From NCBI GenBank assembly GCA_965261055.1, contig OZ253440.1:1364001-1428000 (forward strand): a stretch of DNA of 64,000 bases. Reading direction: 5' to 3'. Below, in pieces: positions 8,992 through 59,819 of the stretch (positions within the stretch are counted from its first letter, which is position 1; each line of letters opens with the position of its first letter). The notes below the pieces were generated by a model that was not told the origin of the DNA, searched no databases, and saw nothing but the letters and a program-made list of their open reading frames with translations. A program made the translations under genes and the position numbers. The stretch is from G965261055 sp965261055 [NCBI: Fibrobacteria bacterium] (GTDB lineage Bacteria; Fibrobacterota; Fibrobacteria; UBA11236).

Positions 8992-8992
8992 A

Positions 8993-10162
8993 TTATTTAA
9001 CTAAACGAACTCCACTGAATTGCCATTGTGTATGAGGGTGAAAAAAATTTCGATAAGTTGGACGACTATGATTATGGGGAGTTGCAATGGATCCACCTCT
9101 AAGAACTATTTGATTAATCATAAACTTTCCATTATATTCTGCTAGAGATCCTTGCAAGCTTTGGTAATTTGGATAAGGTAAATAAGCACTATTTGTCCAT
9201 TCCCATCTTGTTCCAAAGTTAAATTTAGAATGAGAGGCTTCCCATTCAAACTCTGTTGGTAAACGCATTTTTCTCCATAAAGAGAAAGCGTGGGCTTCGT
9301 AAAATGAGACATGACAGAGAGGTGCATCCCAGTTAATTTCTTTAAATCCAGATAGTGTGTAATAAAACCAATTATCTTCGTGTTTCTCCCAATACAATGG
9401 AAATTTGATTTGATTTTTGGAAACCCACTTCCATCCTTCGTCTAACCATAGCTCATAGCGGTTGTAGCCTTGATCAAGGATAAACTTTAAATAATCTTCG
9501 TTTGTAACGAGCTCTGATTGAATAGAGAATTCTTCTAAAAAAACACGGTGTTGAGGTTGTTCATTGTCGTATCTAAAATTTTTAGATTTGGCTCCAATTT
9601 TGTAAGTACCTTCTTTTATGTGAAGCCAATTTTTGGATGAAGGCTGGGTAATATTTTCTTCAACAAGACAATAAGAGTTTTTATAAATAGGTTTAAGAGG
9701 GTTTAAGCCTAAGATTAACTTTAAATCTGTAAGGAGTAATTCTTGATGTTGTTGCTCGTGGTTTAAACTAATTTCAATTAATTTTTTAAGTTTAGAAGAG
9801 TTATTTTCGTTTAAAAGGTTGTGAATACAGTGATCAACATGTTTTCGGTAATCAAAAATTTCTGCTACTGTTGGTCGACTTAAATTCCCTCTGCTATTTT
9901 GCGAGACTCTTTCTCCTAAGGAATTATAGTAGCTATTAAATAGAAAGCTATACTGAGAATTAAAAGGTTTGTAATTAGGGACGAAATTTTTGAGTATGAT
10001 TTCTTCAAAAAACCAAGTTGTATGAGAAAGATGCCATTTTGGTGGGCTTGCAAAATCAGCAGGTTGACAGACACAGTCTTCAGTTTCTAAGGGTTCGCAA
10101 ATTTGGACTGTATAATTTCTAATCAAAGAGAATTTTTCAGTAATGTTTAAATAGTCTGACAT
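8993..10162 (-). CDS. egtB: ergothioneine sulfoxide synthase EgtB
   Basis: 389 residues from the ATG at 10162, which has an AAGGA site just upstream; a TTG 15 bases earlier is open but less likely. EgtB is a non-haem iron enzyme that joins hercynine to a thiol (cysteine or gamma-glutamylcysteine) with oxygen. Seen: a DinB-like N-terminal domain with HLSHTTWFFE and the iron-binding HEQQHQE motif (His-x3-His-x-Glu), then a formylglycine-enzyme-like C-terminal domain ending in VLRGGSIATPHNHSRPTYRN and FSGVRLVK. First gene of the egtB-egtD pair. No egtC or egtE is visible nearby, so the C-S lyase must be elsewhere or a cysteine-type route is used. Confidence 0.93.
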   Translation of the reverse strand: MSDYLNITEKFSLIRNYTVQICEPLETEDCVCQPADFASPPKWHLSHTTWFFEEIILKNFVPNYKPFNSQYSFLFNSYYNSLGERVSQNSRGNLSRPTVAEIFDYRKHVDHCIHNLLNENNSSKLKKLIEISLNHEQQHQELLLTDLKLILGLNPLKPIYKNSYCLVEENITQPSSKNWLHIKEGTYKIGAKSKNFRYDNEQPQHRVFLEEFSIQSELVTNEDYLKFILDQGYNRYELWLDEGWKWVSKNQIKFPLYWEKHEDNWFYYTLSGFKEINWDAPLCHVSFYEAHAFSLWRKMRLPTEFEWEASHSKFNFGTRWEWTNSAYLPYPNYQSLQGSLAEYNGKFMINQIVLRGGSIATPHNHSRPTYRNFFHPHTQWQFSGVRLVK

Positions 10163-10273
10163 AATCCTTGTGGTCAATAAAAAGACAAAACAGGGAATAT
10201 AAAATAATAGTAAGAGATATTAAAGAAAAGAATTTAGAAAAAGAAGTTCTCTAAAATCAGAGCTTTTAAAGGA

Positions 10274-33395: not shown

Positions 33396-33947
33396 TTATA
33401 AAGATTTTGCGAATTCTAATAGATTAGAATAAGATTGTACTTGTTTTAAACTCATTAATAAAGGCTTTTTCCCAGTTTGAATTCCAATGGGTGTTACGCC
33501 AGATCTCCACCCACTTTCAATATCAGTCCAAGTATCACCGACCATATAACTCTCTCTCAAATAAATATGATGTTTTTTTGCTAATGTTTGAATCATTAGA
33601 GGAGATGGTTTTCGGCATTTTTGATGTTGTTGATAAGGTTTTATGATACCTTCTTTTAGATACGGACAATAGATGGTTTCTGTAATATAAATACCTTTTT
33701 GCAAGAGTTTTTGATGAATGTGATTTTGTAGTTTTAAATATTTTTTTTTAGAAAAGATCCCTCGAGAAATTCCAGATTGATTGGTAACAATGAAAAGTTT
33801 AAAGTCTCGTTTTTGAAAAAGAAGTAAAGCTTCCAATACATTTGGAATAAATTCAAAATTTTGTATTTCTGAGACATATTCCTTATCAATATTTAGTGTT
33901 CCATCTCGATCTAGAAAAATTGCTTTTTGTATTTTAAAACAAACCAT
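33396..33947 (-). CDS. gmhB: HAD-IIIA phosphatase, GmhB-like
   Basis: 183 residues. Motif I FLDRDGTLNIDKEYV, motif II VTNQSGISRGIF, motif III Lys in KCRKPSPLM and motif IV VGDTWTDIESGWRSG are those of heptose-bisphosphate / histidinol-phosphate phosphatases. The zinc loop is degenerate: CPYLKEG and HQKCRKP keep two cysteines where the family has Cys-x-His and Cys-x-Cys. It overlaps the 3' end of ubiD by 14 bases. A role in making an activated heptose would fit the GT9 gene at 25096. Confidence 0.85.
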   Translation of the reverse strand: MVCFKIQKAIFLDRDGTLNIDKEYVSEIQNFEFIPNVLEALLLFQKRDFKLFIVTNQSGISRGIFSKKKYLKLQNHIHQKLLQKGIYITETIYCPYLKEGIIKPYQQHQKCRKPSPLMIQTLAKKHHIYLRESYMVGDTWTDIESGWRSGVTPIGIQTGKKPLLMSLKQVQSYSNLLEFAKSL

Positions 33948-35763
33948 GTAAAGGTTTTCCTTTGACTGCTAAGCTTTCAATTTTTTTAACAATTTTTGGA
34001 TCTTCTTCTAATATAGGCGCGTGATGTTTCTTTATGCGAGAATCAATGACTAGAGAACCTTTACATCCCCAATGTTTATTTTCTGTAAATGCGTGTAATC
34101 CATCAATATCTTGAGCGGGATCAGAACGAGTAAATGTAACCCAAATAAACTGTTCTAAAGATTGGCTAGCAAAAGCACTATTATCAACGAGAACAATTAA
34201 TGGATGTTGATTGTTTGTTTGCTTTTCGAAGTTAGAACAAAAAGTCCTTAAACTTCCAACTCCTTTTATTTTGTGTGGAGGTGCTTGGATTACCATTACT
34301 CCTGGGATAACTATTTTGGCTTCTTTAAAATGATTAGGAAGGGTTAGGTTTTTATGGATTTTTTCGGAAAGTTTTCGCTTAATTTTGCCAACTCCAGCAA
34401 TGACAACTTTAGAACCTTTGTTGATACTTGATCCTGTGTAATCTAAGGTATCCATTGTTGTTCGGGTTTGAAAATGCAAATCATTTTCAAAATTCACTCT
34501 TTCCAAAATGTGAGTAAAGAATTGTTTTAGATTACGTACATTTAAATTAGGGTTGTCTTGATACGCACTAATTAAAAGATATTTAGTTAAAGAGCATTGT
34601 CCAAAACCTAATAAAGCATTGGCTGCTGTTAAGGTTTCCATAGGTGTTTTCTCTTTTAGATAAGGGGTGTATCTTTCTTGACCAATAGCTAATAAAAGAG
34701 GATGAACGCCAGCAACATCAACGGCATGAAGTGCTTTCACACCTCCTGGAATTTCTGTTTCTACTAATGAGCCTGTAAGTTCATGTATAAAATCACCAAA
34801 AGCAGTATCCTCTTGAGGAGGACGACCTACAACAGTAAAAGGATAAATGGCATCCTGTTTTGCATAAACAGAGTGTATCTTTAGAAAAGGAAAAGGGTGT
34901 TCAAGGCTATAATAACCTAAATGGTCTCCAAAAGGACCTTCTGGTAAAACTGCATTGGGGTCAATGGTTCCTGTAATGCAAAAGTCAGCATTTAGGTTAA
35001 GTAAAAAACCTTCGGAATCATAACCATACGCAAATCGGCGACGCGTTAATAATCCTGAAAAAATAAGTTCAGGTAGTTTTTCTGGTAGAGGCATGACTGC
35101 AGAAACAGAATAACCTGGATGACCGCCTATAAAGATACTGATTTTTAAAAGTTCTTTTAGGTTTTGAGCCTCAGTATGATGTATTCCTATACCGCGGTGA
35201 ATTTGATAATGTAAACCTATTTCTTTATTCTTTTTGTACTGGTTCCCTGCAAGTTGGATTCGATACATTCCTAGATTAGAATTCTTCCATCCAGGATTAA
35301 GAGGACTTTCGCTATAGACCTGAGGTAGAGTTACAAAAGGGCCACCATCTTTAGGCCAAGATTTAATGAAAGGTAGGTCTGAGATAGAAATCTTTGTAAA
35401 TAGGTTTTCACTAGGAGGCATTTTGCGGGGTAGTAAAGACGGTAAAAGAGGTAGAATTTTGAGAGACTTTAAAGGAGATTTGAAACTTGCGAGAGGATTT
35501 GATTTTAGTGAAAGTAAAAATTGGAGATCTTCTTTGTGCGGAAATAAAAGATTCATTCTTTCTTTAGAACCAAAAATGTTAGATGCACATGAGAAATTAG
35601 AGCCTTTTACATTCTTAAACCAAAGTGCAGGTCCTTGGTTTTCAAAAACGCGTCTGTGTATATACGGTATCTCTAAATTAGGGTCTAGAAAAGTTGAGAG
35701 ACTAACGAGTTCTTTTTTATGCTCTAAATATTCTAAAGTATGTTTTAAAGTAGATTGTTTCAT
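33934..35763 (-). CDS. ubiD: UbiD-family decarboxylase (menaquinone-type)
   Basis: 609 residues, the long form found in futalosine-pathway organisms. UbiD enzymes use prenylated FMN made by UbiX to decarboxylate aromatic acids. Seen: GMYRIQLAGNQ, GIGIHHTEAQNLKE, VSAVMPLPEKLPELIFSGLL, PEGPFGDHLGYYS, VVGRPPQEDTAFGDFIHELT and PGGVKALHAVDVAGVHPLLL, i.e. the prFMN/metal residues and the catalytic Glu region. ubiX, ubiA and ubiE lie at 47608-49725. Confidence 0.93.
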   Translation of the reverse strand: MKQSTLKHTLEYLEHKKELVSLSTFLDPNLEIPYIHRRVFENQGPALWFKNVKGSNFSCASNIFGSKERMNLLFPHKEDLQFLLSLKSNPLASFKSPLKSLKILPLLPSLLPRKMPPSENLFTKISISDLPFIKSWPKDGGPFVTLPQVYSESPLNPGWKNSNLGMYRIQLAGNQYKKNKEIGLHYQIHRGIGIHHTEAQNLKELLKISIFIGGHPGYSVSAVMPLPEKLPELIFSGLLTRRRFAYGYDSEGFLLNLNADFCITGTIDPNAVLPEGPFGDHLGYYSLEHPFPFLKIHSVYAKQDAIYPFTVVGRPPQEDTAFGDFIHELTGSLVETEIPGGVKALHAVDVAGVHPLLLAIGQERYTPYLKEKTPMETLTAANALLGFGQCSLTKYLLISAYQDNPNLNVRNLKQFFTHILERVNFENDLHFQTRTTMDTLDYTGSSINKGSKVVIAGVGKIKRKLSEKIHKNLTLPNHFKEAKIVIPGVMVIQAPPHKIKGVGSLRTFCSNFEKQTNNQHPLIVLVDNSAFASQSLEQFIWVTFTRSDPAQDIDGLHAFTENKHWGCKGSLVIDSRIKKHHAPILEEDPKIVKKIESLAVKGKPLHGLF

Positions 35764-40303: not shown

Positions 40304-41788
40304 TTACGGTTGATGTTGTTTTTTGTTTAAATCTATTACTTCTTTGACTGGATTGAAGGCTTGTTGGTTTATCTCTACTAAAATTGTATTCCATTTTGCC
40401 ATACCACCGTTCCAAAGACCAGGCCATTCCAAAACTTTAAAAGATTGCCCTGTTAAGCTTCTTTGAGTGATTAAGTAGCTGTCGTTATCTTGATATTGTA
40501 GAAGATCAAATTTTTGATGGTGATGATCGACAGTGTTTCCTGCGATAAAGACAGGGTTAAAATGTGTTGAGCTATTAAAGATGCTTTTTTGTTTTGGATT
40601 GTGTAAGTCAATTTGACTTTCCTCTATTATTTGAATAGAAGGGTTCCTATTGCCTTGTTTCACCCAAAAAGGACCACCTCCAGCTTTTCCTGTATTTTTA
40701 ACAACCCCACAAACTCTTAGAGGGTGATTGAAGAAAGAAGTAAGAAAATCTTTTTTAGACTGAAAGGAATTACAATAAGTCCTTTCCTTAAATAAAAAGT
40801 AAGAAGAGTAAATTTGTGCTAAATCAGAAATAGCTTGTTTTTGTTGTGTTTCCGATGGCTGTTCACTTTGTAACAGAGCTTTAAATATTTGTTTTTGAAG
40901 AGAAATTAATAAACCTAAAATCATGCGTCTTTCTAACAAACTATGTTCCTGATGATTTTCGTGGCAAATATTATCAATATTTTTAATGAAGAACAAATCT
41001 GATTTGAGAGCATTTAAATTGTGTAAAAGACTGCCATGTCCTCCAGGTCTTAATAATAATTCTTGATTGGAATTTAAAACCCAATCATTATTTTCGTCTT
41101 GGACTAATGTATCAGTTTGAGGAAGTTGCGTTGAAAGTGAAAATTGGTAAGAATGACAATGCTTCTGACCTTGTTTTAAAATTTTTTGGATGGTGCTTAA
41201 ATGTGATTCTGAGACAGTAAAGTGAATGTGAGTATTGGCTTGAGAGATGCTAATAGCTTCTGAAATTTGTTCTTCTAAAGGTGTTTGAGTGCCTGTTGTA
41301 TAAGTATGGAAGTCAACTAAAGCTTTAGGTAGGTTTCCAAAATTGAGTCCTTGAGGAAGTAAGATAAACTCTAAAATCTTTTTTGCATCTAAGGTTTTTC
41401 CTAGGGTTTTGATAATTTTAGGATAAAAAGGTAGGTAAGGTAGGTTATTTAGAAATTCTTGAGTTTTCTTTTGTGTGTGAGAAGATTTTGGATCTGTATT
41501 CAATGCATTGAGTAGATCAAATTCTTTTTTAAACATACGACTAGCAGCTCCAGATGCAGGAATGAAATGTGTAAGATTTTTTTTAGGTTCGTTTTGAAAG
41601 ATATCAATCCATGCCTGCTTTTCTTGAGGAGAAAATGTCAGAATACCATCTTGTTTTTGACAAGGACGGTTAAGTTTTGCGTAGGAAGAACCTTTTTTGA
41701 ACAAAGAAAGCTGTAATTTTGCTTGATGCAAAGAAATACCCTGTGCTTTAAGTTGTTCTTGTTGTTTTTCTGAAAAGATAGAGGACAT
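40304..41788 (-). CDS. DUF4301 family protein
   Basis: 494 residues. The N-terminal FIPASGAASRMFKKEFDLLN is the DUF4301 nucleotidyltransferase-like start (compare the 'GxxxR.fK' of sugar nucleotidyltransferases), with LLRPGGHGSLLHNLN and KNTGKAGGGPFWVKQGN later. DUF4301 is known chiefly from Bacteroidota and relatives; the function is not established. It stands alone. Confidence 0.82.
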   Translation of the reverse strand: MSSIFSEKQQEQLKAQGISLHQAKLQLSLFKKGSSYAKLNRPCQKQDGILTFSPQEKQAWIDIFQNEPKKNLTHFIPASGAASRMFKKEFDLLNALNTDPKSSHTQKKTQEFLNNLPYLPFYPKIIKTLGKTLDAKKILEFILLPQGLNFGNLPKALVDFHTYTTGTQTPLEEQISEAISISQANTHIHFTVSESHLSTIQKILKQGQKHCHSYQFSLSTQLPQTDTLVQDENNDWVLNSNQELLLRPGGHGSLLHNLNALKSDLFFIKNIDNICHENHQEHSLLERRMILGLLISLQKQIFKALLQSEQPSETQQKQAISDLAQIYSSYFLFKERTYCNSFQSKKDFLTSFFNHPLRVCGVVKNTGKAGGGPFWVKQGNRNPSIQIIEESQIDLHNPKQKSIFNSSTHFNPVFIAGNTVDHHHQKFDLLQYQDNDSYLITQRSLTGQSFKVLEWPGLWNGGMAKWNTILVEINQQAFNPVKEVIDLNKKQHQP

Positions 41789-47607: not shown

Positions 47608-48456
47608 TTAGAAAGTTAAAAAAATAGAGCCAATAACTCCTGTCAACACCAGAAGACTAATAAAAGCATTGGCTAAGAAAAAGAGTTGATTTAAGCTATC
47701 CAATGAACGGTTAGTACTGTAAAAATGAATGTAAATTAAAGTCACCAAGATAAAAGTAAGACAAACGAAATAAGGAATTGTTGGTAGAGTGTAGATTCCT
47801 AAAAATAGCAGTAAACAAAAAGTAATTAAGTGACAAACTTGTGCTAGAACTAAAGCTTTTTTGATTCCTAATTTAGTCACAATAGAATGCAAATTGTTTT
47901 TTCTATCAAATTTATAATCTGCAGTTGCATAGATCGTATCGAATCCAGTCACCCAAAAAAGAAGAGACGTTCCTAATAGAACAGAAGTCATGGATGCATT
48001 TCCAGTTGTTGCGATACAGGTTGCAACGGGTGAGATTCCTAAAGACAATCCTAAAAAAAATTGAGAAAAATAAGAAAAGCGTTTAAAATAAGAATAGCTA
48101 CAGACAACACACAGTATTGGAAATGAAAGTATAAAACACAAAGGGTTTAGATTGTAGGCAACAAAAATAAACAAAGATATATTGGTGAATATAAAAATAA
48201 TAACATGTGAAGGTTTTAATATGCCTTTAGGAATATGTCTGTTTTTAGTACGAGGATTTTTAGCATCAATTTTAGCATCTACCAATCGGTTAAACGCCAT
48301 TGCACTATTTCGACAAAAAGTGATGGCAAGAATAATTGCTATCAGTAATGGTAATGATGGAAAACCATTAGAGGCTAAAAATAGACTAGCTAAAGCAAAT
48401 GGTAAAGCAAAAATAGTGTGTGAGAGGCGAACCAATCCTACAAATTTGAGAATCAT
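47608..48456 (-). CDS. ubiA: UbiA-family prenyltransferase (menaquinone type, MqnP-like)
   Basis: 282 residues from the ATG at 48456, which overlaps the ubiX stop (ATGA) and has GGAG upstream. Eight or so membrane helices with both prenyl-diphosphate aspartate motifs: NRLVDAKIDAKNPRTKNRHI and ATADYKFDRKNNLHSIVT. Attaches a polyprenyl chain to an aromatic acid. Its linkage to ubiX and ubiE, and ubiD at 33934, fits the 1,4-dihydroxy-6-naphthoate (futalosine) route; it could in principle serve as the UbiA of the ebo locus (eboC), but gene linkage argues against that. Confidence 0.9.
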   Translation of the reverse strand: MILKFVGLVRLSHTIFALPFALASLFLASNGFPSLPLLIAIILAITFCRNSAMAFNRLVDAKIDAKNPRTKNRHIPKGILKPSHVIIFIFTNISLFIFVAYNLNPLCFILSFPILCVVCSYSYFKRFSYFSQFFLGLSLGISPVATCIATTGNASMTSVLLGTSLLFWVTGFDTIYATADYKFDRKNNLHSIVTKLGIKKALVLAQVCHLITFCLLLFLGIYTLPTIPYFVCLTFILVTLIYIHFYSTNRSLDSLNQLFFLANAFISLLVLTGVIGSIFLTF

Positions 48457-49016
48457 TCTGATCTCCAAGGTTTACAAATAGAATGGTTTATTTGAAGATG
48501 GTCTAAGATACGAGAAACAATTGTATCAATGAGATCGTAAATATTTTTAGGGTGCTGGTAAAAGTGAGGAGACGGTGGAAGAATAATTGCACCGGTATCG
48601 TGAACTTTAAGCATGTTTTCTAAATGTGTACGGTGTAGAGGTGTTTCCCTAGGAACAATAATTAAAGTGCGTTTTTCTTTAAGTTGCACATCGGCTGTGC
48701 GGCAAAGAAGTCCACTACCGATACCATGAGCAATTTTGCCTAAAGTTCCCATTGAACAAGGTAGAATAACCATTGCGTTTATAGATACGGAACCAGAAGC
48801 AATCGGTGCAAATAAATCTTGATCGGAAAAGTTTTCAAAACAGGCTTTTAGGATAGGGTCGTAACAGTTTTCAAATTTAGTGACCTTTCGACCTGTTTCT
48901 GTAAAAATTACGCTCACATGATGATTTAATTCTGTTAGCACTTCAGCTAGTCGTTGAGCATAAATTCCTCCAGATGCTCCTGTAATTCCCAAAACAATAT
49001 GTTTTTGAGTTTGCAT
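48453..49016 (-). CDS. ubiX: flavin prenyltransferase UbiX
   Basis: 187 residues. VLGITGASGGIYAQRLAEVL, FAPIASGSVSINAMVILPCS MGTLGKIAHGIG-type core, and LIIVPRETPLHRTHLENML are standard UbiX. Makes prenylated FMN, the cofactor UbiD needs. Coupled to ubiE (1-base gap) and ubiA (4-base overlap). Confidence 0.96.
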   Translation of the reverse strand: MQTQKHIVLGITGASGGIYAQRLAEVLTELNHHVSVIFTETGRKVTKFENCYDPILKACFENFSDQDLFAPIASGSVSINAMVILPCSMGTLGKIAHGIGSGLLCRTADVQLKEKRTLIIVPRETPLHRTHLENMLKVHDTGAIILPPSPHFYQHPKNIYDLIDTIVSRILDHLQINHSICKPWRSE

Positions 49017-49017
49017 A

Positions 49018-49725
49018 TTATTTTTTTTGTGTTAGCACAATGTCAGATGTGCTAGCATCGCAAGCCCATGTCCACGATTGATTAAAAGATTCAAGACATT
49101 TTTTTTGATATTCTTGAACGGAATAAAATTGACAGATAGATTGAATAAGGTATTGGTAAGCCTCTTTCTGTTTAGCCAACAATGCACCTAATACAGGAAC
49201 AAATAACGGTGCTAAAACTTTGTAAAATAAAGTTGGGATTATTTTTACAGGGCGGAAAAATTCCAATGTCATAAAAAAACCTTTAGGTTTTATGACACGA
49301 GCAATTTCGGAAATGGCAATGGTTAAATTGTCTAAATTTCTCATTCCGTAGCCACACATGACAATATCAAAGGAATTGTCGGTAAAAGGTAATTGAAGAG
49401 CATCACATTGCAAAGGAAAGGTTGAAATATCCTTTTTTTGAGCATGAGATAGCATAGGAAAAGAGAAATCACCTAAAACACTCAGTTTTATATGAGGATA
49501 GGATTTGTGGAGACTTTGAATAAGATCTCCAGTTCCTCCACATAAATCTAAAACCTTAATCTTTTGATTAGGTGAAGCCAAAAATTGAGTGCTTTTCATT
49601 GTTTTAAGCATTTTTTGAATGGCTTTTTTACGCCAAGCAAGGTCACGACCAGCACTCATAAAGTGATTTAAAAAATCATACCGACGAGCGACTTGATCAA
49701 ACATTTTTTGAATTTTTTTAGACAT
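49018..49725 (-). CDS. ubiE: menaquinone/ubiquinone C-methyltransferase
   Basis: 235 residues from the ATG at 49725 (a TTG three codons earlier is possible). Motifs: MFDQVARRYDFLNHFMSAGR, VLDLCGGTGDLIQSLHKSYP (SAM site), FDIVMCGYGMRNL and PKGFFMTLEFFRPV. Methylates demethylmenaquinone, last step of quinone synthesis. First gene of ubiE-ubiX-ubiA. Confidence 0.94.
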   Translation of the reverse strand: MSKKIQKMFDQVARRYDFLNHFMSAGRDLAWRKKAIQKMLKTMKSTQFLASPNQKIKVLDLCGGTGDLIQSLHKSYPHIKLSVLGDFSFPMLSHAQKKDISTFPLQCDALQLPFTDNSFDIVMCGYGMRNLDNLTIAISEIARVIKPKGFFMTLEFFRPVKIIPTLFYKVLAPLFVPVLGALLAKQKEAYQYLIQSICQFYSVQEYQKKCLESFNQSWTWACDASTSDIVLTQKK

Positions 49726-49790
49726 AGGGTTCAAATATAAACTTTAATTTATCCTTAAGTAAATTAAAATAAGCTGACTTTTAAAATGAT

Positions 49791-52045: not shown

Positions 52046-53161
52046 TTAAAATTTGTTTGTTAAAATATCAATAATGAGTTGCTGGTCATTTTTTGAGAGA
52101 CTAGGATATAATGGTAAGTTTATAATTTGATTAGAGATACGGTTTGCAACTGGAAATTGATTTTTTTTGTAGCCTAATTGTAAAAAAATGGGTTGGTCTG
52201 AAAGTAAGGGGGAATAGTAATTTTGAAAAGGAATTTTTTGTTTTCTTAATTTTTGCTCTAAAAGGCTTTTATTTTCTATAAGAATAGAAAAAACAGAAAA
52301 AGAAGACTCTACAAAATTAGGACAAACGCTTAAAAGTTTAGGAGATAGTTTTTGTTGATATTGCTCTGCTATTTTTTTGCGATGTTTTTGATTTGCAGAA
52401 AATTCTTTCCATTTTACTAATAAAATAGCGGCTTGAATGGTGTCCATTCGAGAATTTAACCCTAAAGAAGTGTATCCCCTAGATTCTATGCCATGCTGAG
52501 TAAGAGAGCGTATTTTTTCTTCTTGTTTTGTTGTTTTACAAAAAACGGCACCTCCTTGACCATATGCTCCTAACGACTTTGTAGGATAAAAACTAGTTGT
52601 AGAAATATCAGCGAGAGATCCAGATGGTTTTCCTCTTAAGGACGCTCCAATACTTTGAGCAGCATCTTCAATCACAAAAAGGTTTTTTTTCTTCGCCCAA
52701 TGGTTAATTTGGTCATAGTCACAGGGAATTCCAAACAAATTAATAGCAAGAATTCCAGAGATACGACCGTTAAAAGAAATACAATTTTGCTTTTGTTGAT
52801 AGTATTTGTATCCTATATCTAGTGTATTTACATCTAAATTGAATGTTTTAGAATCTATATCACAAAAAAGAGGAACGGCACCTACACGACAAATGGCTTC
52901 TGCAGTAGCGATAAATGAATAGCAGGAGGTAAGTACTCCGTCACCTTTTTGAGTACCCATTACTTTAAGTGCTAAAACTAAAGCATCTGTTCCACTATGA
53001 CAAGCAACAGCCTTAACATTGAGGTACGAAGACATTTTTTTTTCAAATTCTGTGACTTCAGGACCGTTGACAAACTGTTGATGATTAAAAACCGTAGAGA
53101 TACTATCAAAGATTTCTTCTTTTATGCTTAGCCATTGATGTGATAAATCAAACCATTTCAC
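52046..53161 (-). CDS. DegT/DnrJ/EryC1-family PLP aminotransferase
   Basis: 371 residues from a GTG whose GTGA overlaps the pabAB stop. Marks of the sugar-aminotransferase family: FVNGPEVTEFEKKMSSYLNV, CHSGTDALVLALKVMG, VIEDAAQSIGASLRG (PLP-phenol Asp), SFYPTKSLGAYGQGGAVFCK (PLP-binding Lys) and LGLNSRMDTIQAAILLVK. The pattern is closest in memory to WbpE/WlbC-type enzymes that aminate keto-sugar nucleotides; members of the same fold aminate cyclitols such as scyllo-inosose. The neighbouring eboD-like cyclase makes the cyclitol option worth testing. Substrate cannot be decided from sequence. Confidence 0.9.
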   Translation of the reverse strand: MKWFDLSHQWLSIKEEIFDSISTVFNHQQFVNGPEVTEFEKKMSSYLNVKAVACHSGTDALVLALKVMGTQKGDGVLTSCYSFIATAEAICRVGAVPLFCDIDSKTFNLDVNTLDIGYKYYQQKQNCISFNGRISGILAINLFGIPCDYDQINHWAKKKNLFVIEDAAQSIGASLRGKPSGSLADISTTSFYPTKSLGAYGQGGAVFCKTTKQEEKIRSLTQHGIESRGYTSLGLNSRMDTIQAAILLVKWKEFSANQKHRKKIAEQYQQKLSPKLLSVCPNFVESSFSVFSILIENKSLLEQKLRKQKIPFQNYYSPLLSDQPIFLQLGYKKNQFPVANRISNQIINLPLYPSLSKNDQQLIIDILTNKF

Positions 53162-55236
53162 TTTTCTTTCTCTGTTAAATTTTTGGATAAGATATTTAAA
53201 AGAGGCAATGCTTTAAACCACATCTCGCGATATTCTGTTTCTAAATCGGATTCTATGGTAATTGCTCCTCCAGCTCCAAATGTAACTTGGTTTGAATTTA
53301 TCCATAGTGAACGAATTGCAACATTGAAGCATAAACTGTTATCTCCGCCAATATATCCAATATTTCCTGTATAATGGTTGCGTTTATGTGGCTCTAAGTT
53401 TTGAATAAATTGAGTGGCTCTTGTTTTAGGTGCTCCTGTAATTGAACCCGATGGATATAGTGCGTTAAAAATGTCAGATAGTGTTGTTTTGCCTTCTATT
53501 TCTCCAGAGATACATGAAGAAAGTTGCAAAACATTAGACCATTGAGTTAATGACTTTAGAGATTGTGTTTTGATGGAATCAGGAGTGCAAATTTTAGATA
53601 AATCATTTCTAAATAAATCTGTAATCATTAAAAGTTCAGAGCTTTCTTTATCAGATTGAAAAAATTTTTTCTTTTGATTTTCTATAACAGTTTCTGTTTC
53701 AATTTGTCTAGAACCTTTCATCGGTCTTGTTAGAATATGACCTTGTGGAGAAATTTGAAAAAAGAGTTCAGGAGAAACACTTATTAAAGAACCTTCTGGT
53801 GTTTTTAAATAGGCAGAATAAGGGGCTGGAATCAAGTCTCGCAAGTTTTTATATAAAGAAACCGTATCTATGTTTTTATAAGGATAGATAAATTGATTGG
53901 TGAGGCACATTTCATAAATTTGTCCCTCCTTTAGATAATTCTTTATTTTTAGAAATTGTGCTGTGTATTGTTTTTTGGATAGGGATTTTAAAAGTGAAGG
54001 ATGGTTTTCCCAAAAAGATTGGTTTCTTTTTTGTATAAATTGACCATCCATGTTAGGTTTATTTATAGCAGAATTTTCTTTAAGTGTTGTTTCTAAAATT
54101 TTAGCTAAATCATTATGAGGTGAAGAATAAATAAAAAAGCGTTTTTCTTGATGATCCCAAACAAAAAAATTAGTCGCTTCTAGCCATAGTGATTTTTGTT
54201 CTCTATCTAGTGTTTTTACATTGGATGCGTAATCGAAGAAACCAACAAGACCGTTTTGGATAGGAAATTGATTGTTTAAATTTGTTTTAGACTTTTGTTG
54301 ATATGTTTGTAAAAAATCCAAGATGGAAGAAAATTCTAAAATTTCTTTTTTCCAAGAATTAGATTTTTGTTTTTTAAAAAAAGAACCTTTATCTAAACTC
54401 CAGATACGCTCCGAAACTCCCATGTAGCTAAATCTTTCTTGTTGTGAAACATCTGTTGTCTTTAATTGATCTCTATTTGAATCTAACCAAAAACAATAAG
54501 GCTTTGTAATAAGGTTTTTCCACAGAAGGATAGGGATTTCTAACCAAGGGTGTTCTTGGACTTGAGAGTTTGTGATGATTTCATTTAAATTTAAATCAGG
54601 AGATGTTTGATTTTTTTTTTTGGTTGCAAGAGGAATAAATTTGTGTGTTAAATTATGTATCTCGAAGAAATTTTGAATGATCTTTTTTCCGTTGACTGTA
54701 CCAATAGATTCTGGATGGAATTGCAACCCATAGAAAGGTTTGTCCGTTAATGAGATTGCCATAATTTTAGAGTCTTCTTGACTTGTTGCCAAAATATTAA
54801 CAGTAGAAGGAACGCAAGAGTTATCTAAAACTAGGGAATGATAACGAACGGCTTTGAATGGGTTTGGTAGGTCTTTAAATAATGCTTTTTGATTGTGAAT
54901 GATTTTAGAGTACTTTCCATGGAAGGTATTAGAAGATTTTTTAATCTTCATTTTTTCTGAAAATCCAATGCCTTGCATTCCTAAACAAATGCCTAAAATA
55001 GGAATGTTTTTAGATTGTTCTAGAAGTTTTGAACAGTATCCAAAATCAGATTTTTTTTCAACTGTACCTGGTCCTGGTGACAGAATAATTGTGTCAAAAC
55101 TTTCCCATTCATTGGTTTCTAGCCAAGGGTTACTGTTAACAACAACAGTAGGTTCATAACCTGTAACATTCCAGATTAAATTTTTTAATAAATAAGAGTA
55201 AGAATCATAGTTATCAATTAATAATACTTTAATCAT
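53158..55236 (-). CDS. pabAB: fused aminodeoxychorismate synthase (PabA-PabB)
   Basis: 692 residues. Residues 1-200 are a class I glutamine amidotransferase (IDNYDSYSYLLKNL, LSPGPGT, catalytic Cys in ILGICLGMQGIGF, His/Glu in GLQFHPESIGT). Residues about 380-690 are a chorismate-binding domain (KQYTAQFLKIKNYLKEGQIY, EMCLTNQFIYP, SVSPELFF, TRPMKGSRQ, PSGSITGAPKTRA, IGYIGGDNSLCFNVAIRS). The Lys in RPMKGS is the PabB catalytic lysine; anthranilate synthase has Ala there (PIAGT). It therefore makes 4-amino-4-deoxychorismate for folate, or for secondary metabolites. No lyase (pabC) is adjacent. The start is 42 bases below the epimerase gene. Confidence 0.92.
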   Translation of the reverse strand: MIKVLLIDNYDSYSYLLKNLIWNVTGYEPTVVVNSNPWLETNEWESFDTIILSPGPGTVEKKSDFGYCSKLLEQSKNIPILGICLGMQGIGFSEKMKIKKSSNTFHGKYSKIIHNQKALFKDLPNPFKAVRYHSLVLDNSCVPSTVNILATSQEDSKIMAISLTDKPFYGLQFHPESIGTVNGKKIIQNFFEIHNLTHKFIPLATKKKNQTSPDLNLNEIITNSQVQEHPWLEIPILLWKNLITKPYCFWLDSNRDQLKTTDVSQQERFSYMGVSERIWSLDKGSFFKKQKSNSWKKEILEFSSILDFLQTYQQKSKTNLNNQFPIQNGLVGFFDYASNVKTLDREQKSLWLEATNFFVWDHQEKRFFIYSSPHNDLAKILETTLKENSAINKPNMDGQFIQKRNQSFWENHPSLLKSLSKKQYTAQFLKIKNYLKEGQIYEMCLTNQFIYPYKNIDTVSLYKNLRDLIPAPYSAYLKTPEGSLISVSPELFFQISPQGHILTRPMKGSRQIETETVIENQKKKFFQSDKESSELLMITDLFRNDLSKICTPDSIKTQSLKSLTQWSNVLQLSSCISGEIEGKTTLSDIFNALYPSGSITGAPKTRATQFIQNLEPHKRNHYTGNIGYIGGDNSLCFNVAIRSLWINSNQVTFGAGGAITIESDLETEYREMWFKALPLLNILSKNLTEKEK

Positions 55237-55278: not shown

Positions 55279-56082
55279 TTAGATGAATGTTTTAAAAAAA
55301 ATTTCAGAAGATTTTATTGCTTTTTGATATTCTTGATTAAAAGGATATAAGTCAGGAGTGTAGTCTCCTTGATAGCACATTTGGGATAATTGATTTTGAA
55401 TTTTGTCAAAGGGAATGTTTCCTTCTCCAAATAGCAAATGTTTATGAGTCCGATCTTGAATATCCTCAAGGTGTAGGTTGTAAATATAAGGAGCTAATTT
55501 ATTGAGCATCTCTGAAATATTTTCCCCTAAAACATGACTGTGTCCTATATCAAAATTGGCACCAATTTTACCTTGAAATTTTTGGCATAATTCTAAAAGT
55601 TGCGAGCTAGAATGAATAATATGTTCGGGTTCTTGTTCCACTCCTAATTGAACGGATCCTTGATAATTAGAAAAAAGCCATTCAAAAAAGTCATAATACA
55701 GGTTGATTTGATTTTGTAGCGGTATATTGGAGTTGACAATTCCCGATGTGATTGTTAGATGGGGAGCATTTAGTAATTCTGCGATTTTGAGGCATTGTAA
55801 AATTATGTTCCATTTGATTTCTCTTTGTGTTTTATTTTCTTCGCAAATACTTGGGTAATATATTTGTTTGTTAAGTAAAAGGAGGTGCCCCAAATGGATA
55901 TTGCGAATAGTTAAATCATTCTCTTGAAAGATATGTAAAGTTTGTTTCCAAAAATCGGAACTTTGATTTAAAAATTCTGGTAAAATGACGAGTTCAATAC
56001 CTGTAAAGATAGAGGGCTTTATGATTTTACAAAGTTCTTTAAAAGGACGATTGGGTAGTGACCCTGTGCTATAACATAACAT
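55279..56082 (-). CDS. xylose-isomerase-like TIM barrel (sugar epimerase-like)
   Basis: 267 residues. Superfamily features: a Glu in QLGVEQEPEH, Asp/His in IGANFDIGHSHVLG, NLHLEDIQDRTHKHLLFGEG and GNIPFDKIQNQL. The last metal Glu of the family is replaced by Asp or lost (YTPDLYPF). It overlaps the 3' end of the eboD-like gene by 14 bases, so the two are surely cotranslated and probably act on the same metabolite. Not the same as eboE, which is longer and lies on the other strand. Confidence 0.82.
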   Translation of the reverse strand: MLCYSTGSLPNRPFKELCKIIKPSIFTGIELVILPEFLNQSSDFWKQTLHIFQENDLTIRNIHLGHLLLLNKQIYYPSICEENKTQREIKWNIILQCLKIAELLNAPHLTITSGIVNSNIPLQNQINLYYDFFEWLFSNYQGSVQLGVEQEPEHIIHSSSQLLELCQKFQGKIGANFDIGHSHVLGENISEMLNKLAPYIYNLHLEDIQDRTHKHLLFGEGNIPFDKIQNQLSQMCYQGDYTPDLYPFNQEYQKAIKSSEIFFKTFI

Positions 56083-57178
56083 GAAAAAAATCTCTTAAAA
56101 CTAATTTTAAATCCTCTAAGTTAACGCTAAATAGTAAGCTACCATTATTGAGGTAGGGTTTACCGAGTTGTTCAATAAAGATAAATTGAAAGTTGTTCGC
56201 TGTTTTTTTATTGTCTTTTAGGAGTGTTTCTAAAATTAAATCAAGATTTTGAAAAGATGGTATTTTCGGTTTTGGTAGTAAGTCTAATAATTCATTTTGT
56301 TTTTTTAATTCTGATTCAGGCATGATTTTTAAGTGGTAAGCTAGTTTTCCCGCAAATTTTAAACCAATCCAAACGGCTTCACCGTGTAACAATGCGTTGT
56401 GAGAGATATATTCTAAAGCGTGTCCTAGGGTATGACCGTATTCTAAAACTAAACCTTGCTGTTTTTCAGATGGATCAAGCTTTGCTATAATTTTCTTTTG
56501 TTCTAGGGAGTGCTCAATAATTAGATTTAAGATGTTTTTGTCTTGTTTTAAATGCTGTAAATTATCAATACACTTTTGATAATGTTTCTCACCTAAAATT
56601 AAAGCATTTTTGCAATATTCGGTTAGAGCTGAATTAATTTGTCTTTGAGGCTCTGTTGTAATAAAATCATAGTTGATAAATACAGCTTGAGGATGAGAAA
56701 AACAGCCCCATTTATTTTTACTTCCATGGAAGTTAATTGATTGCTTATTAGAAATAACAACATCAGATTGAGCCATTAGTGTTGTAGGGACATGTATAAA
56801 GCGAATGCCACGATATAATAAGGAAGCTACTAAACCGCCTAAATTAAGAATTCCACCTCCACCAAAATTCAAAATTAAAGAGCGTCTTGTGGCTTTAAGG
56901 TCTAAAATGCGTTGTCCTAATGCATTGAGGTTTTCAATATTTTTATTACTTTCTCCAGAAGGAACTGTTAGCCAATAGCTTGTTTTTTGAGGAGGTAAAT
57001 ATTTTTGGAGAGTGTTCTGGTGTAGTTTGATAATCTGAGAGTCAGATATAATAAAAAGTACATCAAAATCAAGCTTGTTCAGCCATAAGTACATATTCTT
57101 TAAGGATTTGATCCCTTTGTAAATAGGGGTTTCTCCTAATAGAGGAGATATAAAAAATTCAGTATTTGTCATTGGCAT
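56069..57178 (-). CDS. eboD: EboD-like sugar phosphate cyclase (dehydroquinate synthase family)
   Basis: 369 residues. The NAD/metal core of the family is present: LTVPSGESNKN, NFGGGGILNLGGLVASLLYRG, HVPTTLMAQSDVVISNKQ SIN, SALTEYCKNALI, YGHTLGHALE and LLHGEAVWIGL (zinc ligands Glu and two His). Asn replaces the Asp after GGG (GGGILN), and 'PTTLMAqSD...S.KQsiN' resembles 2-deoxy-scyllo-inosose-synthase- and EboD-type cyclases rather than true AroB. It should cyclise a sugar phosphate to a cyclitol; the product is unknown. It is divergent from eboE (44 bases between start codons). Confidence 0.82.
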   Translation of the reverse strand: MPMTNTEFFISPLLGETPIYKGIKSLKNMYLWLNKLDFDVLFIISDSQIIKLHQNTLQKYLPPQKTSYWLTVPSGESNKNIENLNALGQRILDLKATRRSLILNFGGGGILNLGGLVASLLYRGIRFIHVPTTLMAQSDVVISNKQSINFHGSKNKWGCFSHPQAVFINYDFITTEPQRQINSALTEYCKNALILGEKHYQKCIDNLQHLKQDKNILNLIIEHSLEQKKIIAKLDPSEKQQGLVLEYGHTLGHALEYISHNALLHGEAVWIGLKFAGKLAYHLKIMPESELKKQNELLDLLPKPKIPSFQNLDLILETLLKDNKKTANNFQFIFIEQLGKPYLNNGSLLFSVNLEDLKLVLRDFFHVML

Positions 57179-57222
57179 AATTTAAAGCAGGATTATTTAA
57201 CATTTTACTAAATTTTTAAGTG

Positions 57223-58437
57223 ATGTCCAATGTATTTAATTCTAAATGGACTTATAGTTCTAATGTATTTAATTTAACTTCCTTAAATGTTTGGAAGGAA
57301 AAGATGGTTTTTTTTGGGAAAGCGATCAAAGAACAGATTAATAAGCCACGGTTAGATTTAGGATTGTGGATAAGTGCTACAGTGTTAGAGGAAGTTTCTT
57401 CTAAAGAAAATTTATTAGAGATACTTAATCTTTTAAAAGTAAATGATTTGAATGCTTTTACTATGAATGGTTTTCCTTATGGTAATTTTCATCAAAAAAT
57501 TGTTAAGACAAATGTTTATTTACCTGACTGGAGTACGTTAGAAAGATTGACTTACACATTGGATTGTGCGAAGTTCTTAACAAAATTAACTAGATATTCT
57601 AAAGTGACAATTTCGACATTACCATTGGGTTGGTCTTTGTTTTGGAATGAATCTAAAATGGTACAAGCTGTTCAAAATTTATTTGAATTGATTGAAGAAT
57701 TAAAGAAAGTAGAAGATACAACAGGAGTTCAAATTCAAGTTTGTTTGGAGCCCGAGCCAGGCTGTGTTTTGGAACACACGAAACAAACAGTTGATTTTTG
57801 GAATCAAAAAATTCTTTCTTACGCTAAATTAAAAGGTTATTCTAACGAAGTTGTGTGTCGTTATTTAGGTGTTTGCTATGATACTTGTCATCAAAGTGTA
57901 CAATTTGAAAATGTAATTGAAAGTTTAAAATTATTTGTTGAAAATGGTATTTCAATTGGAAAAATACAAGTTTCAAATGCACTAGAGTTTCTTCCAGATA
58001 GGAATAAAGATACACTTTCTCAGAGAGAAGTTTTTGTTGAAGAAAAGTTTTTGCATCAAACGCGTAGCTTAGAAAAAACAGGAGTTGTTAGAAGTTATGA
58101 TGATTTAGATTTAGCTTTAAAGGATAAAGAAATTAATTGGAGTACTCCTTGGAGAACACATTATCATTTGCCTTTATTTTTGGAAGAAACTTTAGACCAA
58201 AATATGCGCTCATCACAAAGTATTTTTAAAACAACAATACAGGATACACTAGATGCTGTTAAGTATGCTTTAGATCTTAAATTGTGTGAACATTTTGAAA
58301 TAGAAACATACACTTGGTCTACTTTACCTGCAGAGTGGTGTCCTACCAATGATTTCAGTCTTGCTCAGAATATTTCTAAGGAATGGTTATGGATGGAAAA
58401 TAAGGTAAAAGAATTTTCAATAATGGGTAAAATTTGA
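57223..58437 (+). CDS. eboE: EboE-like TIM barrel
   Basis: 404 residues from the ATG at 57223; a GTG one codon earlier is possible. The sequence SLNVWKEKMVFFGKAIKEQI, LDLGLWISA, AFTMNGFPYGNFHQKIVKTN, VYLPDWSTLERLTYT and ISTLPLGWSLFW follows the EboE pattern ('LNGFPYG.FH...VKe.VYlPDW'). A second half with VCLEPEPGCVLEH, GVCYDTCHQSVQF and HFEIETYTW supplies likely metal ligands (Glu, Asp/His, Glu). EboE is part of the ebo operon, whose role in cyanobacteria is tied to moving scytonemin precursors; the chemical step is unknown. Coupled to eboF by a 4-base overlap. Confidence 0.87.
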   Translation: MSNVFNSKWTYSSNVFNLTSLNVWKEKMVFFGKAIKEQINKPRLDLGLWISATVLEEVSSKENLLEILNLLKVNDLNAFTMNGFPYGNFHQKIVKTNVYLPDWSTLERLTYTLDCAKFLTKLTRYSKVTISTLPLGWSLFWNESKMVQAVQNLFELIEELKKVEDTTGVQIQVCLEPEPGCVLEHTKQTVDFWNQKILSYAKLKGYSNEVVCRYLGVCYDTCHQSVQFENVIESLKLFVENGISIGKIQVSNALEFLPDRNKDTLSQREVFVEEKFLHQTRSLEKTGVVRSYDDLDLALKDKEINWSTPWRTHYHLPLFLEETLDQNMRSSQSIFKTTIQDTLDAVKYALDLKLCEHFEIETYTWSTLPAEWCPTNDFSLAQNISKEWLWMENKVKEFSIMGKI

Positions 58438-59819
58438 AAAGATTAGCTGTTTTAAATGTTGTTGGATTAACTGAAAGTTTAATAAGTAATATAACCCCTC
58501 ATTTGAAATCTTGTTTCAATAATTACAAAACAAGTTATTTGAAAGAACAATTTCCAGCAGTTACTTGTACCAGTCAGGTTTGTATGCTAACAGGAAAAAA
58601 TCCTTCAGATCATGGGATTGTAGCGAATGGTTGGTATTTTAAAGAATTGGCGGAAATAGGTTTTTGGAAACAAAATAATAATTTGATAGATTCTCCAAAG
58701 ATTTGGGATGTTCTCAAAAAACAAAATAATAGCTTTACTTGTGCCCAACTTTTTTGGTGGTACAATATGTATGCTGATGTTGATTACAGCATTACACCTC
58801 GCCCCCATTATCCAGCGGATGGTCGTAAAATTTTTGATATTTATACACAACCAAGCTCACTTAAAGAAGGTGTTGTAGAAGATATTGGGGAATTTCCATT
58901 TTTTAATTTTTGGGGACCAAAATCTGGAATAGAGTCTTCAGACTGGATTTCTAAAAGTGCTAAATATGTATTTGAAAAACATCAGCCAAATTTAAATCTT
59001 GTGTATCTTCCTCATCTTGATTACAGTTTACAACAATTGGGACCAAATCATCCTGATGTTCAAAATGAACTCAAAAAAATAGATGTTGTTGTTGGTGACT
59101 TAATCTCTTTCTATAAAGATAGGGACACAGAGGTTATGATTGTTTCTGAATATGGAATTACAGAAGTGAACCAAGTTTTACATCCAAATCGAGTTTTAAG
59201 AAAAGTAGGATATCTTCAAGTTCAAAAGAGTCTTTCTTGGGAGTTGTTAGACTGTGGAGCTAGTGAAGCTTTTGCAGTTAGTGATCATCAAATTTGTCAT
59301 ATTTATGTTAAAGACAAACGAAAAATCCCTGAAATAGTCTGTTTGTTTGAGAAACAAGAGGGACATTTAAATATTCTATTTGGAGAAGCTATTAAAGAGA
59401 ATAACCTTAATCATGATCGTAGTGGTGATATCATTTTAATGTCTAAACCCAACTTTTGGTATTCTTATTATTACTGGCTAGATGATCGGTTTGCACCTGA
59501 TTTTTCTCGCTGTATTGATATTCATCGGAAATCAGGTTATGATCCTTGTGAATTATTTATTGATCCTAAACTTTTGTTCCCCAAATTAAAAATGATTAAA
59601 ACCCTAATTAAGAAATTTTTAGGCTTTCGTTATTATATGGATATCATTCCTTTAGATACAAGTCTTATTAAAGGGAGTCACGGAACACCTGTAGAGGATC
59701 GGCAAGCGGGTCCTTTGATGATGTGCTCTTATAAGAAAATGGAAGCACAAATCAAAACATTACCGATTACGAGTGTTTATCAAATAATTTTGAATTATTT
59801 TCAAGATATAGATGATTAG
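58434..59819 (+). CDS. eboF: EboF-like alkaline-phosphatase-superfamily protein
   Basis: 461 residues from a TTG that overlaps the eboE stop (TTGA). Nucleotide-pyrophosphatase/phosphodiesterase superfamily: the metal/nucleophile region EQFPAVTCTSQVCMLTGKNP SDHG has Thr/Ser after FPAVTC, with LPHLDYSLQQLGPNHP and a final SHGTPVEDRQAG supplying Asp/His ligands. VLNVVGL at the start replaces the usual 'D.l' start, and VSEYGI stands where 'SDHG' is typical, so some ligands are changed. Gene order eboE-eboF matches known ebo operons. Its 3' end overlaps rsgA (opposite strand) by 4 bases. Confidence 0.85.
   Translation: MKRLAVLNVVGLTESLISNITPHLKSCFNNYKTSYLKEQFPAVTCTSQVCMLTGKNPSDHGIVANGWYFKELAEIGFWKQNNNLIDSPKIWDVLKKQNNSFTCAQLFWWYNMYADVDYSITPRPHYPADGRKIFDIYTQPSSLKEGVVEDIGEFPFFNFWGPKSGIESSDWISKSAKYVFEKHQPNLNLVYLPHLDYSLQQLGPNHPDVQNELKKIDVVVGDLISFYKDRDTEVMIVSEYGITEVNQVLHPNRVLRKVGYLQVQKSLSWELLDCGASEAFAVSDHQICHIYVKDKRKIPEIVCLFEKQEGHLNILFGEAIKENNLNHDRSGDIILMSKPNFWYSYYYWLDDRFAPDFSRCIDIHRKSGYDPCELFIDPKLLFPKLKMIKTLIKKFLGFRYYMDIIPLDTSLIKGSHGTPVEDRQAGPLMMCSYKKMEAQIKTLPITSVYQIILNYFQDIDD

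What the first reader, a model, noticed from the sequence alone, without database searches (positions are those of the whole stretch)
55279..59819. Rearranged partial ebo locus with an extra epimerase and divergent promoters
eboD-like cyclase with an overlapping TIM-barrel gene faces eboE-eboF across a 44-base gap. Known ebo operons (as remembered: eboA-B-C-D-E-F in one direction, with a TatD-like and a UbiA-like protein) differ: here A and B are missing, C is not linked, and a second epimerase-like gene is fused by overlap to eboD. This may be a stripped or alternative form making a different cyclitol product.
Basis: partly seen in the sequence, partly recalled or inferred. Interest (0 to 1): 0.72.

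Follow-up and report, generated by a model that had tools for sequence, protein, structure and literature searches.

The report
Ebo locus with a swapped cyclase
A bacterial ebo locus, a gene set of unknown product, carries here a ring-forming enzyme of the kind that starts aminoglycoside antibiotics instead of its usual one, together with a matching sugar isomerase-like gene, which hints at what kind of molecule ebo makes and how to test it.

Summary
The anatomy is as described: a TIM-barrel gene and a cyclase on the minus strand face eboE-eboF across 44 bases. EboE passes its curated model; EboF is 42-45% identical to known EboF. The cyclase is not EboD: it fails the EboD and AroB models, forms a 100/100 clade with 2-deoxy-scyllo-inosose synthases (DOIS) and shares their active-site glutamate, so it probably cyclises glucose 6-phosphate.

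Ten of 167 Fibrobacterota genomes have the same cyclase, next to and divergent from eboE in all ten. Cyclase and TIM gene overlap by exactly 14 nt in the window and nine relatives. The ten also carry eboA-eboB on another contig and an eboC-like gene; none has classical EboD, all have a separate AroB-like gene. So in the relatives the set is split and EboD replaced, not stripped. The window's own genome is not held.

A related TIM gene accompanies ebo loci with inositol-phosphate synthase (21 of 21, mostly Actinobacteria) or the DOIS-like cyclase (10 of 11), against 1 weak hit in 23 EboD loci. I propose a hexose-phosphate (C6 cyclitol) variant of ebo. Chemistry is inferred, not shown.

The parts
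55279..56082 (-). TIM2: xylose-isomerase-like TIM barrel (PF01261), a second isomerase/epimerase-like gene beside EboE; overlaps the cyclase by 14 nt
   Evidence: PF01261 69.3 bits; AF2 model pLDDT 95.2, closest solved folds L-xylulose-5-phosphate 3-epimerase UlaE and ketose 3-epimerases (Z 30.2, rmsd 2.0, 258 aligned); orthologues beside the cyclase in 9 of 10 relatives, in the tenth the contig ends inside the cyclase
56069..57178 (-). DOIS-like sugar phosphate cyclase, in the place of EboD
   Evidence: best solved sequence relative 2-deoxy-scyllo-inosose synthase 2d2x 169.7 bits against 126.8 for the best DHQS; clade with DOIS 100/100; E in LEYGHT and DNK motif as in DOIS
57179..57222 (.). 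44-base gap between the divergent genes
   Evidence: sequence; no promoter signal above chance
57223..58437 (+). eboE (GTG at 57220 is an alternative start)
   Evidence: NF035939 TIM_EboE 350.2 bits, cut-off 250; 32-35% identity to three ebo-linked EboE
58434..59819 (+). eboF, type I phosphodiesterase/pyrophosphatase family, overlaps eboE by 4 nt
   Evidence: PF01663 206 bits; 42-45% identity to three ebo-linked EboF; 55-59% to the EboF of the ten Fibrobacterota relatives
53158..55236 (-). PabA-PabB fusion, same strand, 42 nt downstream of TIM2; probably not part of the module
   Evidence: PF00117 and PF00425; no tblastn hit of it in the 12-20 kb read around the module in the ten relatives
52046..53161 (-). 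DegT/DnrJ/EryC1/StrS aminotransferase at the end of the same run; probably not part of the module
   Evidence: PF01041; best solved relatives are a DegT-family enzyme 227 bits, Gln:scyllo-inositol transaminase 222 and WbpE 221, not decisive; no tblastn hit of it around the module in the ten relatives

Best explanation
This is the core of an ebo system in which the usual cyclase EboD has been replaced by a DOIS-type cyclase working with a second TIM-barrel enzyme. Shown by sequence: EboE and EboF are genuine; the cyclase is in the DOIS clade; in ten relatives the cyclase keeps the same divergent place beside eboE-eboF, and eboA-eboB and an eboC-like gene are present in the genome. Inferred: the cyclase turns glucose 6-phosphate (NAD+, divalent metal) into 2-deoxy-scyllo-inosose or a close C6 inosose; TIM2 isomerises or epimerises that inosose; EboE, EboB and EboF process it; EboC may attach it to a prenyl carrier; the product serves the still unknown ebo function (export of a scytonemin precursor to the periplasm in Nostoc). 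The 14-nt overlap suggests that cyclase and TIM2 are made together.
For: Cyclase: best PDB relative DOIS; clade of 10 Fibrobacterota cyclases (window plus nine) and 4 DOIS at 100/100, apart from 19 EboD, S7P cyclases and DHQS, kept at 100/99 with three planctomycete members added; glutamate of BtrC E243 in 14 of 14 of that clade and 0 of 39 other rows, DNK motif likewise. Fails EboD model NF004852 (155 against cut-off 333) and AroB model TIGR01357 (236.8 against 305). Genomes: 11 of 167 Fibrobacterota have EboE; 10 of these 11 have this cyclase (193-320 bits) and in the other 156 genomes the best hit is 150.5 bits; all 10 lie next to and divergent from EboE. Over-cut-off EboA in exactly the same 10 of 167, paired with EboB on another contig (EboB was searched in 11 genomes only). 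No classical EboD in any of the 10, against 350.7 bits in the eleventh EboE genome. TIM2 at E <= 1e-15 in 9 of the 10 and in none of the other 157. Overlap of exactly 14 nt in 10 of 10 loci read. Ebo-type TIM gene with Ino1 in 21 of 21 loci, with the DOIS-like cyclase in 10 of 11, with EboD 1 weak hit of 23; Ino1 elsewhere in both TIM-bearing gammaproteobacteria without a cyclase at the locus, in 0 of 7 EboD genomes. In 2 of 3 planctomycetes the related cyclase lies divergently beside a phosphoglucose isomerase gene.
Against: No activity was measured; the window cyclase is only about 30% identical to BtrC and its clade is its own, so the product may differ. In planctomycete G584 the cyclase-TIM2 pair stands without ebo genes within about 9 kb on either side, and in G628 and G697 the related cyclase has neither TIM2 nor ebo genes nearby, so TIM2 does not always go with it. 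Fold comparison alone does not choose between DOIS and DHQS (Z 38.8 against 39.5, tied). The window's genome is not held; eboA, eboB and eboC are not in the 64 kb. The EboC-like proteins stay under the model's cut-off, and that model also rings below cut-off in 9 of 14 control genomes. The TIM split is biased: the two haloarchaeal loci were found through their TIM gene and have no recognised EboE; some EboD loci have short flanks; an EboD locus (Ketogulonicigenium, L003) does carry another sugar phosphate isomerase gene that falls outside the ebo-linked TIM group; 1 of 5 EboE genomes with no cyclase found at the locus and no TIM also has Ino1. The Fibrobacterota genomes may be one lineage and 19 of 21 Ino1 loci are Actinobacteria, so the counts are not independent.
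Confidence: 0.64

Rival explanations
1. The cyclase-TIM2 pair is an independent inosose/aminocyclitol module (perhaps with the downstream DegT aminotransferase giving an aminocyclitol) that merely shares a divergent control region with eboE-eboF.
For: Pair found without ebo genes nearby in planctomycete G584; in the window a DegT aminotransferase lies two genes downstream, and DOIS normally works with a DegT aminotransferase (recalled; DegT genes are in the same stretch as two of the three DOIS loci fetched, L001 and L192, not L191). A DegT-family gene lies 3-5 kb from the eboC-like gene in 3 of 5 loci where that gene is unlinked (28-32% identity, family level only).
Against: Divergent adjacency in 10 of 10 relatives and exact co-occurrence with EboE and EboA in 167 genomes (one eleventh EboE genome has EboD instead); DegT and PabAB are not kept beside it in the relatives; related TIM genes sit in clusters with Ino1 and ebo genes in Actinobacteria and haloarchaea.
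Confidence: 0.19
2. The cyclase is a convergent stand-in that makes the same C7 cyclitol as EboD from sedoheptulose 7-phosphate, so the ebo product is unchanged.
For: Same slot in the gene set; the other Ebo proteins are kept in the relatives.
Against: DOIS-type residues, not the EboD or S7P-cyclase type; parallel use of Ino1, whose known substrate is glucose 6-phosphate (recalled), in ebo clusters elsewhere; phosphoglucose isomerase gene beside two related cyclases.
Confidence: 0.12
3. The cyclase is a true 3-dehydroquinate synthase and the layout is coincidence.
For: TIGR01357 aroB is its best NCBIfam match by score (236.8 bits).
Against: Below that model's cut-off of 305, as two DOIS also are (262.6 and 204.2); outside the DHQS rows in the trees; lacks the Asn of the DHQS LN-GHT motif; each of the ten relatives has a second, AroB-like cyclase in an open frame of 548-713 codons, and the three of these put in a tree fall with the DHQS side.
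Confidence: 0.03

Closest known systems
Classical ebo operon eboABCDEF (Bacteroidota, Cyanobacteria; PMC5133447, PMC6282210)
   Same: EboE and EboF present and adjacent; EboA, EboB and an EboC-like protein in the relatives' genomes
   Different: no EboD; DOIS-type cyclase plus extra TIM gene; divergent layout; eboA-eboB on another contig in relatives
2-deoxy-scyllo-inosose synthase (BtrC and aminoglycoside relatives)
   Same: one clade at 100/100, active-site Glu and DNK motif, conserved SPC residues kept
   Different: own Fibrobacterota subclade; linked to eboE-eboF; no aminoglycoside gene set seen around it
Actinobacterial ebo clusters and haloarchaeal ebo-like clusters with inositol-3-phosphate synthase (L004, L013 and others; L189, L206)
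   Same: no EboD at the locus, a C6 cyclitol synthase instead, and an ebo-type TIM gene
   Different: cyclase of the unrelated Ino1 family; genes in one cluster; no EboE recognised in the haloarchaeal ones
EboD (NF004852) and sedoheptulose 7-phosphate cyclases
   Same: sugar phosphate cyclase superfamily
   Different: separate branch (99/94); EboD has RPLDFGHW or RPLDYGHW where this has LEYGHT

Membership tests
EboE | passes curated model NF035939 (cut-off 250 bits) | tested here: met
   350.2 bits
EboF | type I phosphodiesterase family and close to ebo-linked EboF | tested here: met
   PF01663 206 bits; 42-45% identity to three EboF; no EboF-specific model was used
EboD | passes NF004852, the model that ebo-linked EboD pass (cut-off 333; NCBI names it 3-dehydroquinate synthase) | tested here: not met
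   155.4 bits; three ebo-linked EboD 526-544 bits
EboD | groups with EboD in a tree | tested here: not met
2-deoxy-scyllo-inosose synthase type | forms one clade with DOIS | tested here: met
   100/100 with BtrC and three DOIS from plasmids, two annotated as DOIS and one (L192) placed by me from its gene cluster; 100/99 in the larger set
2-deoxy-scyllo-inosose synthase type | active-site Glu (BtrC E243) and DNK motif | tested here: met
   14 of 14 in the clade, 0 of 39 outside; role of the residue is recalled
2-deoxy-scyllo-inosose synthase type | makes 2-deoxy-scyllo-inosose from glucose 6-phosphate | not testable with these tools
   needs an assay
AroB (3-dehydroquinate synthase) | passes TIGR01357 (cut-off 305) and has the DHQS residues | tested here: not met
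   236.8 bits; residues
Complete ebo gene set (EboA-F) | EboA, EboB, EboC in the same genome | tested here: inconclusive
   own genome not held; EboA and EboB not in the 64 kb; in the ten relatives EboA and EboB are present in 10 of 10, an EboC-like protein in 10 of 10 but under its model's cut-off
EboC (window UbiA gene 47608-48468) | passes NF035940 (cut-off 250) | tested here: not met
   23.9 bits; 271.5 on UbiA-other, 243.5 on MqnP

The most novel reading that the evidence does not exclude
The cyclase slot of ebo is interchangeable across bacteria and, in an ebo-like form, archaea (EboD, Ino1 or DOIS-type), and where it is Ino1 or DOIS-type a dedicated TIM isomerase comes with it. If the three routes feed the same later steps, the ebo product is built on a C6 inosose-like cyclitol, and EboD itself may use a hexose phosphate rather than the sedoheptulose 7-phosphate proposed so far.
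Probability: 0.3. Interest if true: 0.78.

Novelty: new variant of a known kind. Interest (0 to 1): 0.57.

Why it matters
The ebo genes are widespread (many bacteria, some algal plastids), are needed for scytonemin precursor export in Nostoc and were hit in mutants of a Pseudomonas that lost its protection from nematodes, and their product is unknown (PMC6282210 and PMC5133447, passages seen). The published guess for the cyclase EboD is a cyclitol from sedoheptulose 7-phosphate. A natural replacement of EboD by an enzyme type whose substrate is known, with a matching isomerase-like gene, turns 'what does ebo make' into a simple assay.

Tried and rejected
Considered and dropped: true AroB (trees, residues, separate AroB-like gene in relatives); window UbiA as EboC; PabAB and DegT as parts of the module (not found beside it in relatives); 'stripped' locus (eboA-eboB elsewhere in all ten relatives); divergent promoters (no signal above shuffles).

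Led nowhere: fold comparison of the cyclase (DOIS first by Foldseek E-value, but tied with DHQS by Z; model pLDDT 84.9 with 24 residues under 50); TIM2 fold (generic ketose/sugar-phosphate epimerase, no specific substrate; IolI only rank 31 by Foldseek); exact place of TIM2 among ebo-linked TIM proteins (one group of 33 rows at 95/93 with EboE, Actinobacteria, haloarchaea and gammaproteobacteria, inner order unresolved, long outgroup branches); papers on Art22, an isomerase that ranks high in the fold comparison (none), and a follow-up on aristeromycin (listing only, not used).

Rows dropped or thinned: L005, L006, L007 and L062 were left out because the same genomes are in it as L144/L145, L143, L141 and L146; L144 and L145 are two contigs of one genome and count as one among the 11 DOIS-like loci. 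Of 95 loci there, 34 had neither a recognised cyclase nor a TIM gene and 5 had a TIM gene but no cyclase at the locus (L008, L012, L067, L069, L188). The one TIM hit in an EboD locus is L074, 61 bits. G001's cyclase, split over two contigs, was left out of the trees. DHQS_Tlie and FibSPC_L092 were dropped before the second tree. For one search the actinobacterial TIM rows were thinned from 21 to 10 and the Ketogulonicigenium-type rows from 15 to 5.
Full report
Source. Its own genome is not held, so statements on the whole genome rest on relatives.

Anatomy. On the minus strand lie a sugar phosphate cyclase (56069-57178) and a TIM-barrel gene (55279-56082, here TIM2) that overlap by 14 nt; on the plus strand eboE (57223-58437) and eboF (58434-59819) overlap by 4 nt. 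The two divergent ATGs are 44 bases apart. EboE scores 350.2 bits on NF035939 (cut-off 250). EboF is 42-45% identical to EboF of three ebo clusters, of Bacteroidota, Alphaproteobacteria and Actinomycetota. Downstream of TIM2 on the same strand follow a PabA-PabB fusion and a DegT aminotransferase; downstream of eboF comes rsgA on the opposite strand, with no eboC between. EboA and EboB are not in the 64 kb.

The cyclase is not EboD. Three ebo-linked EboD pass NF004852 at 526-544 bits (cut-off 333); this cyclase scores 155. Its best solved relative is 2-deoxy-scyllo-inosose synthase BtrC (169.7 bits, next 126.8 for a DHQS), while for the Aureibacter EboD the order is reversed (DHQS 148.3, DOIS 94.5). 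In a tree of 53 cyclases the ten Fibrobacterota cyclases (window and nine relatives) form a clade at 100/100 and join four DOIS at 100/100; the 19 EboD lie with the sedoheptulose 7-phosphate cyclases at 100/97. At the position of BtrC Glu243 all 14 members of this clade have Glu (LEYGHT), and 0 of the 39 other rows do: DHQS have Asn, EboD and S7P cyclases Asp; the DNK motif splits the same way. The importance of Glu243 in BtrC is recalled. By fold alone DOIS and DHQS are tied.

Conservation. In 167 Fibrobacterota genomes EboE occurs in 11. Ten of the 11 have this cyclase (283-320 bits, or 193 plus a second piece where a contig ends); the best hit in any other genome is 150.5 bits. In all 10 the cyclase is divergent from and next to eboE. 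TIM2 is found at E <= 1e-15 in 9 of 167 genomes, all among the 10; in the tenth the contig ends inside the cyclase. The cyclase-TIM2 overlap is exactly 14 nt in the window and in the 9 relatives read, taking the conserved MLCYST start. EboA over cut-off is found in exactly these 10 of 167 (one more genome has a sub-threshold 23-bit hit), next to EboB (67-78% identical to the Aureibacter EboB) on a contig other than that of the cyclase in 10 of 10. An EboC-like UbiA protein is the best NF035940 match in each (121-141 bits, under the cut-off of 250): directly after eboF in 5, about 8 kb away in 1, elsewhere in 4. This is weaker evidence: the model rings below cut-off in 9 of 14 control genomes, but the cluster-linked EboC of Ketogulonicigenium itself scores only 79.5. 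None of the 10 has a classical EboD; their EboD-query hits are an AroB-like protein (110-151 bits) and this cyclase (67-91 bits), whereas G004, the eleventh EboE genome, has EboD at 350.7 bits and no EboA over cut-off. So in these relatives the ebo set is split, with EboD replaced.

Parallel replacements. In a Streptomyces plasmid and in 18 further actinobacterial loci the ebo cluster has inositol-3-phosphate synthase, mostly a UbiA gene, a TIM gene, eboA, eboB, eboE and eboF, and no EboD at the locus (eboA, eboC or eboF is not seen in a few). Haloarchaeal plasmids have TatD, TIM, UbiA, TIM, Ino1 and an EboF-like gene (Natronococcus, Halocatena), with no EboE recognised; Haladaptatus has the same without Ino1 at the locus. 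Pfam confirms Ino1 in both groups. The three best plasmid matches of TIM2 are the TIM genes after UbiA in these haloarchaeal clusters (24-27%, down to 2e-16). Counted over 95 loci (94 after merging two contigs of one genome): ebo-type TIM gene with Ino1 in 21 of 21 (19 actinobacterial, 2 haloarchaeal; the latter were found through the TIM gene), with the DOIS-like cyclase in 10 of 11 (the exception is the contig end), with EboD in 1 of 23 (61 bits); 5 loci had a TIM gene without cyclase and 34 had neither. Against a clean split: the EboD cluster of Ketogulonicigenium carries another sugar phosphate isomerase gene, which falls outside the ebo-linked TIM group, and some EboD loci are cut short by contig ends. 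The two gammaproteobacteria with TIM and no cyclase at the locus have Ino1 elsewhere in the genome; of the other 12 genomes in that search 0 of 7 with EboD and 1 of 5 with no cyclase found have it. These are few independent lineages.

Outside Fibrobacterota. Among 392 Planctomycetota genomes three have a cyclase at 222-248 bits and a fourth one at 157; among 387 genomes of the phylum of L042 (a Verrucomicrobia genome) the best is 159. In G584 the cyclase is followed by a TIM2 relative (35%, 173 bits) without ebo genes in the 20 kb read; in G628 and G697 it lies divergently beside a phosphoglucose isomerase gene, without TIM2 or ebo genes in the stretch read. These three join the clade. Adjacency to phosphoglucose isomerase in two genomes fits glucose 6-phosphate as substrate; the lack of TIM2 there shows that the pair is not obligatory.

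TIM2. The AF2 model is confident (pLDDT 95.2) and closest to L-xylulose-5-phosphate 3-epimerase and ketose 3-epimerases, so an isomerase or epimerase is likely; its substrate is not told by fold. In a tree of 48 TIM proteins the ebo-linked ones fall in one group (95/93) with EboE, but inner order and long outgroups make this weak.

Literature. In the held open-access library, searches with ebo terms listed no paper that by title or abstract start ties ebo to DOIS or inositol synthase; two searches listed only 20 of 66 and 20 of 302 papers. Of PMC5133447 I saw passages and part 1 of section 3.2: it defines eboA-F, places EboD near enzymes that use sedoheptulose 7-phosphate, reports planctomycetes with unclustered ebo genes and two of three without EboD, notes TIM-EboA hybrids in Actinobacteria, and its main text does not hold words that begin with inositol or Fibrobacter. 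Of PMC6282210, PMC9235831 and PMC4426668 I saw passages. Subscription papers are not covered.

Verdict. A new variant of the ebo system, well supported as gene content and phylogeny, inferred as chemistry.

Noticed in passing
window 1600-7335: 1911-aa protein with 21 matched Big_2 Ig-like stretches, encoded by a tandem array of 252-bp units over about 5 kb.
   Followed up: partly
window 8035-10177: Adjacent histidine-specific methyltransferase and FGE-sulfatase/DinB gene, as in the ergothioneine pair EgtD-EgtB (the pathway name is recalled).
   Followed up: partly
window 47608-49734 and 33934-35763: UbiA/MqnP-like, UbiX and UbiE genes in a row and a UbiD gene about 12 kb away, as in the futalosine menaquinone pathway (pathway recalled).
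   Followed up: partly
L218 8919-12434: Planctomycete with the cyclase-TIM2 pair but no ebo genes nearby, beside a Rieske/flavodoxin oxygenase and an AraC-type regulator.
   Followed up: partly
L190 461-9773: Roseomonas plasmid with Ino1, methyltransferase, Gfo/Idh, YcaO, TIM, glycosyltransferase and PIG-L genes; its TIM protein falls with the actinobacterial ebo TIM proteins.
   Followed up: no
L017, L026, L040 and other planctomycete loci: EboE without any other ebo gene recognised by the references used in the stretch held.
   Followed up: no
window 40304-41788: Protein covered nearly end to end by DUF4301 (493 bits), function unknown.
   Followed up: no
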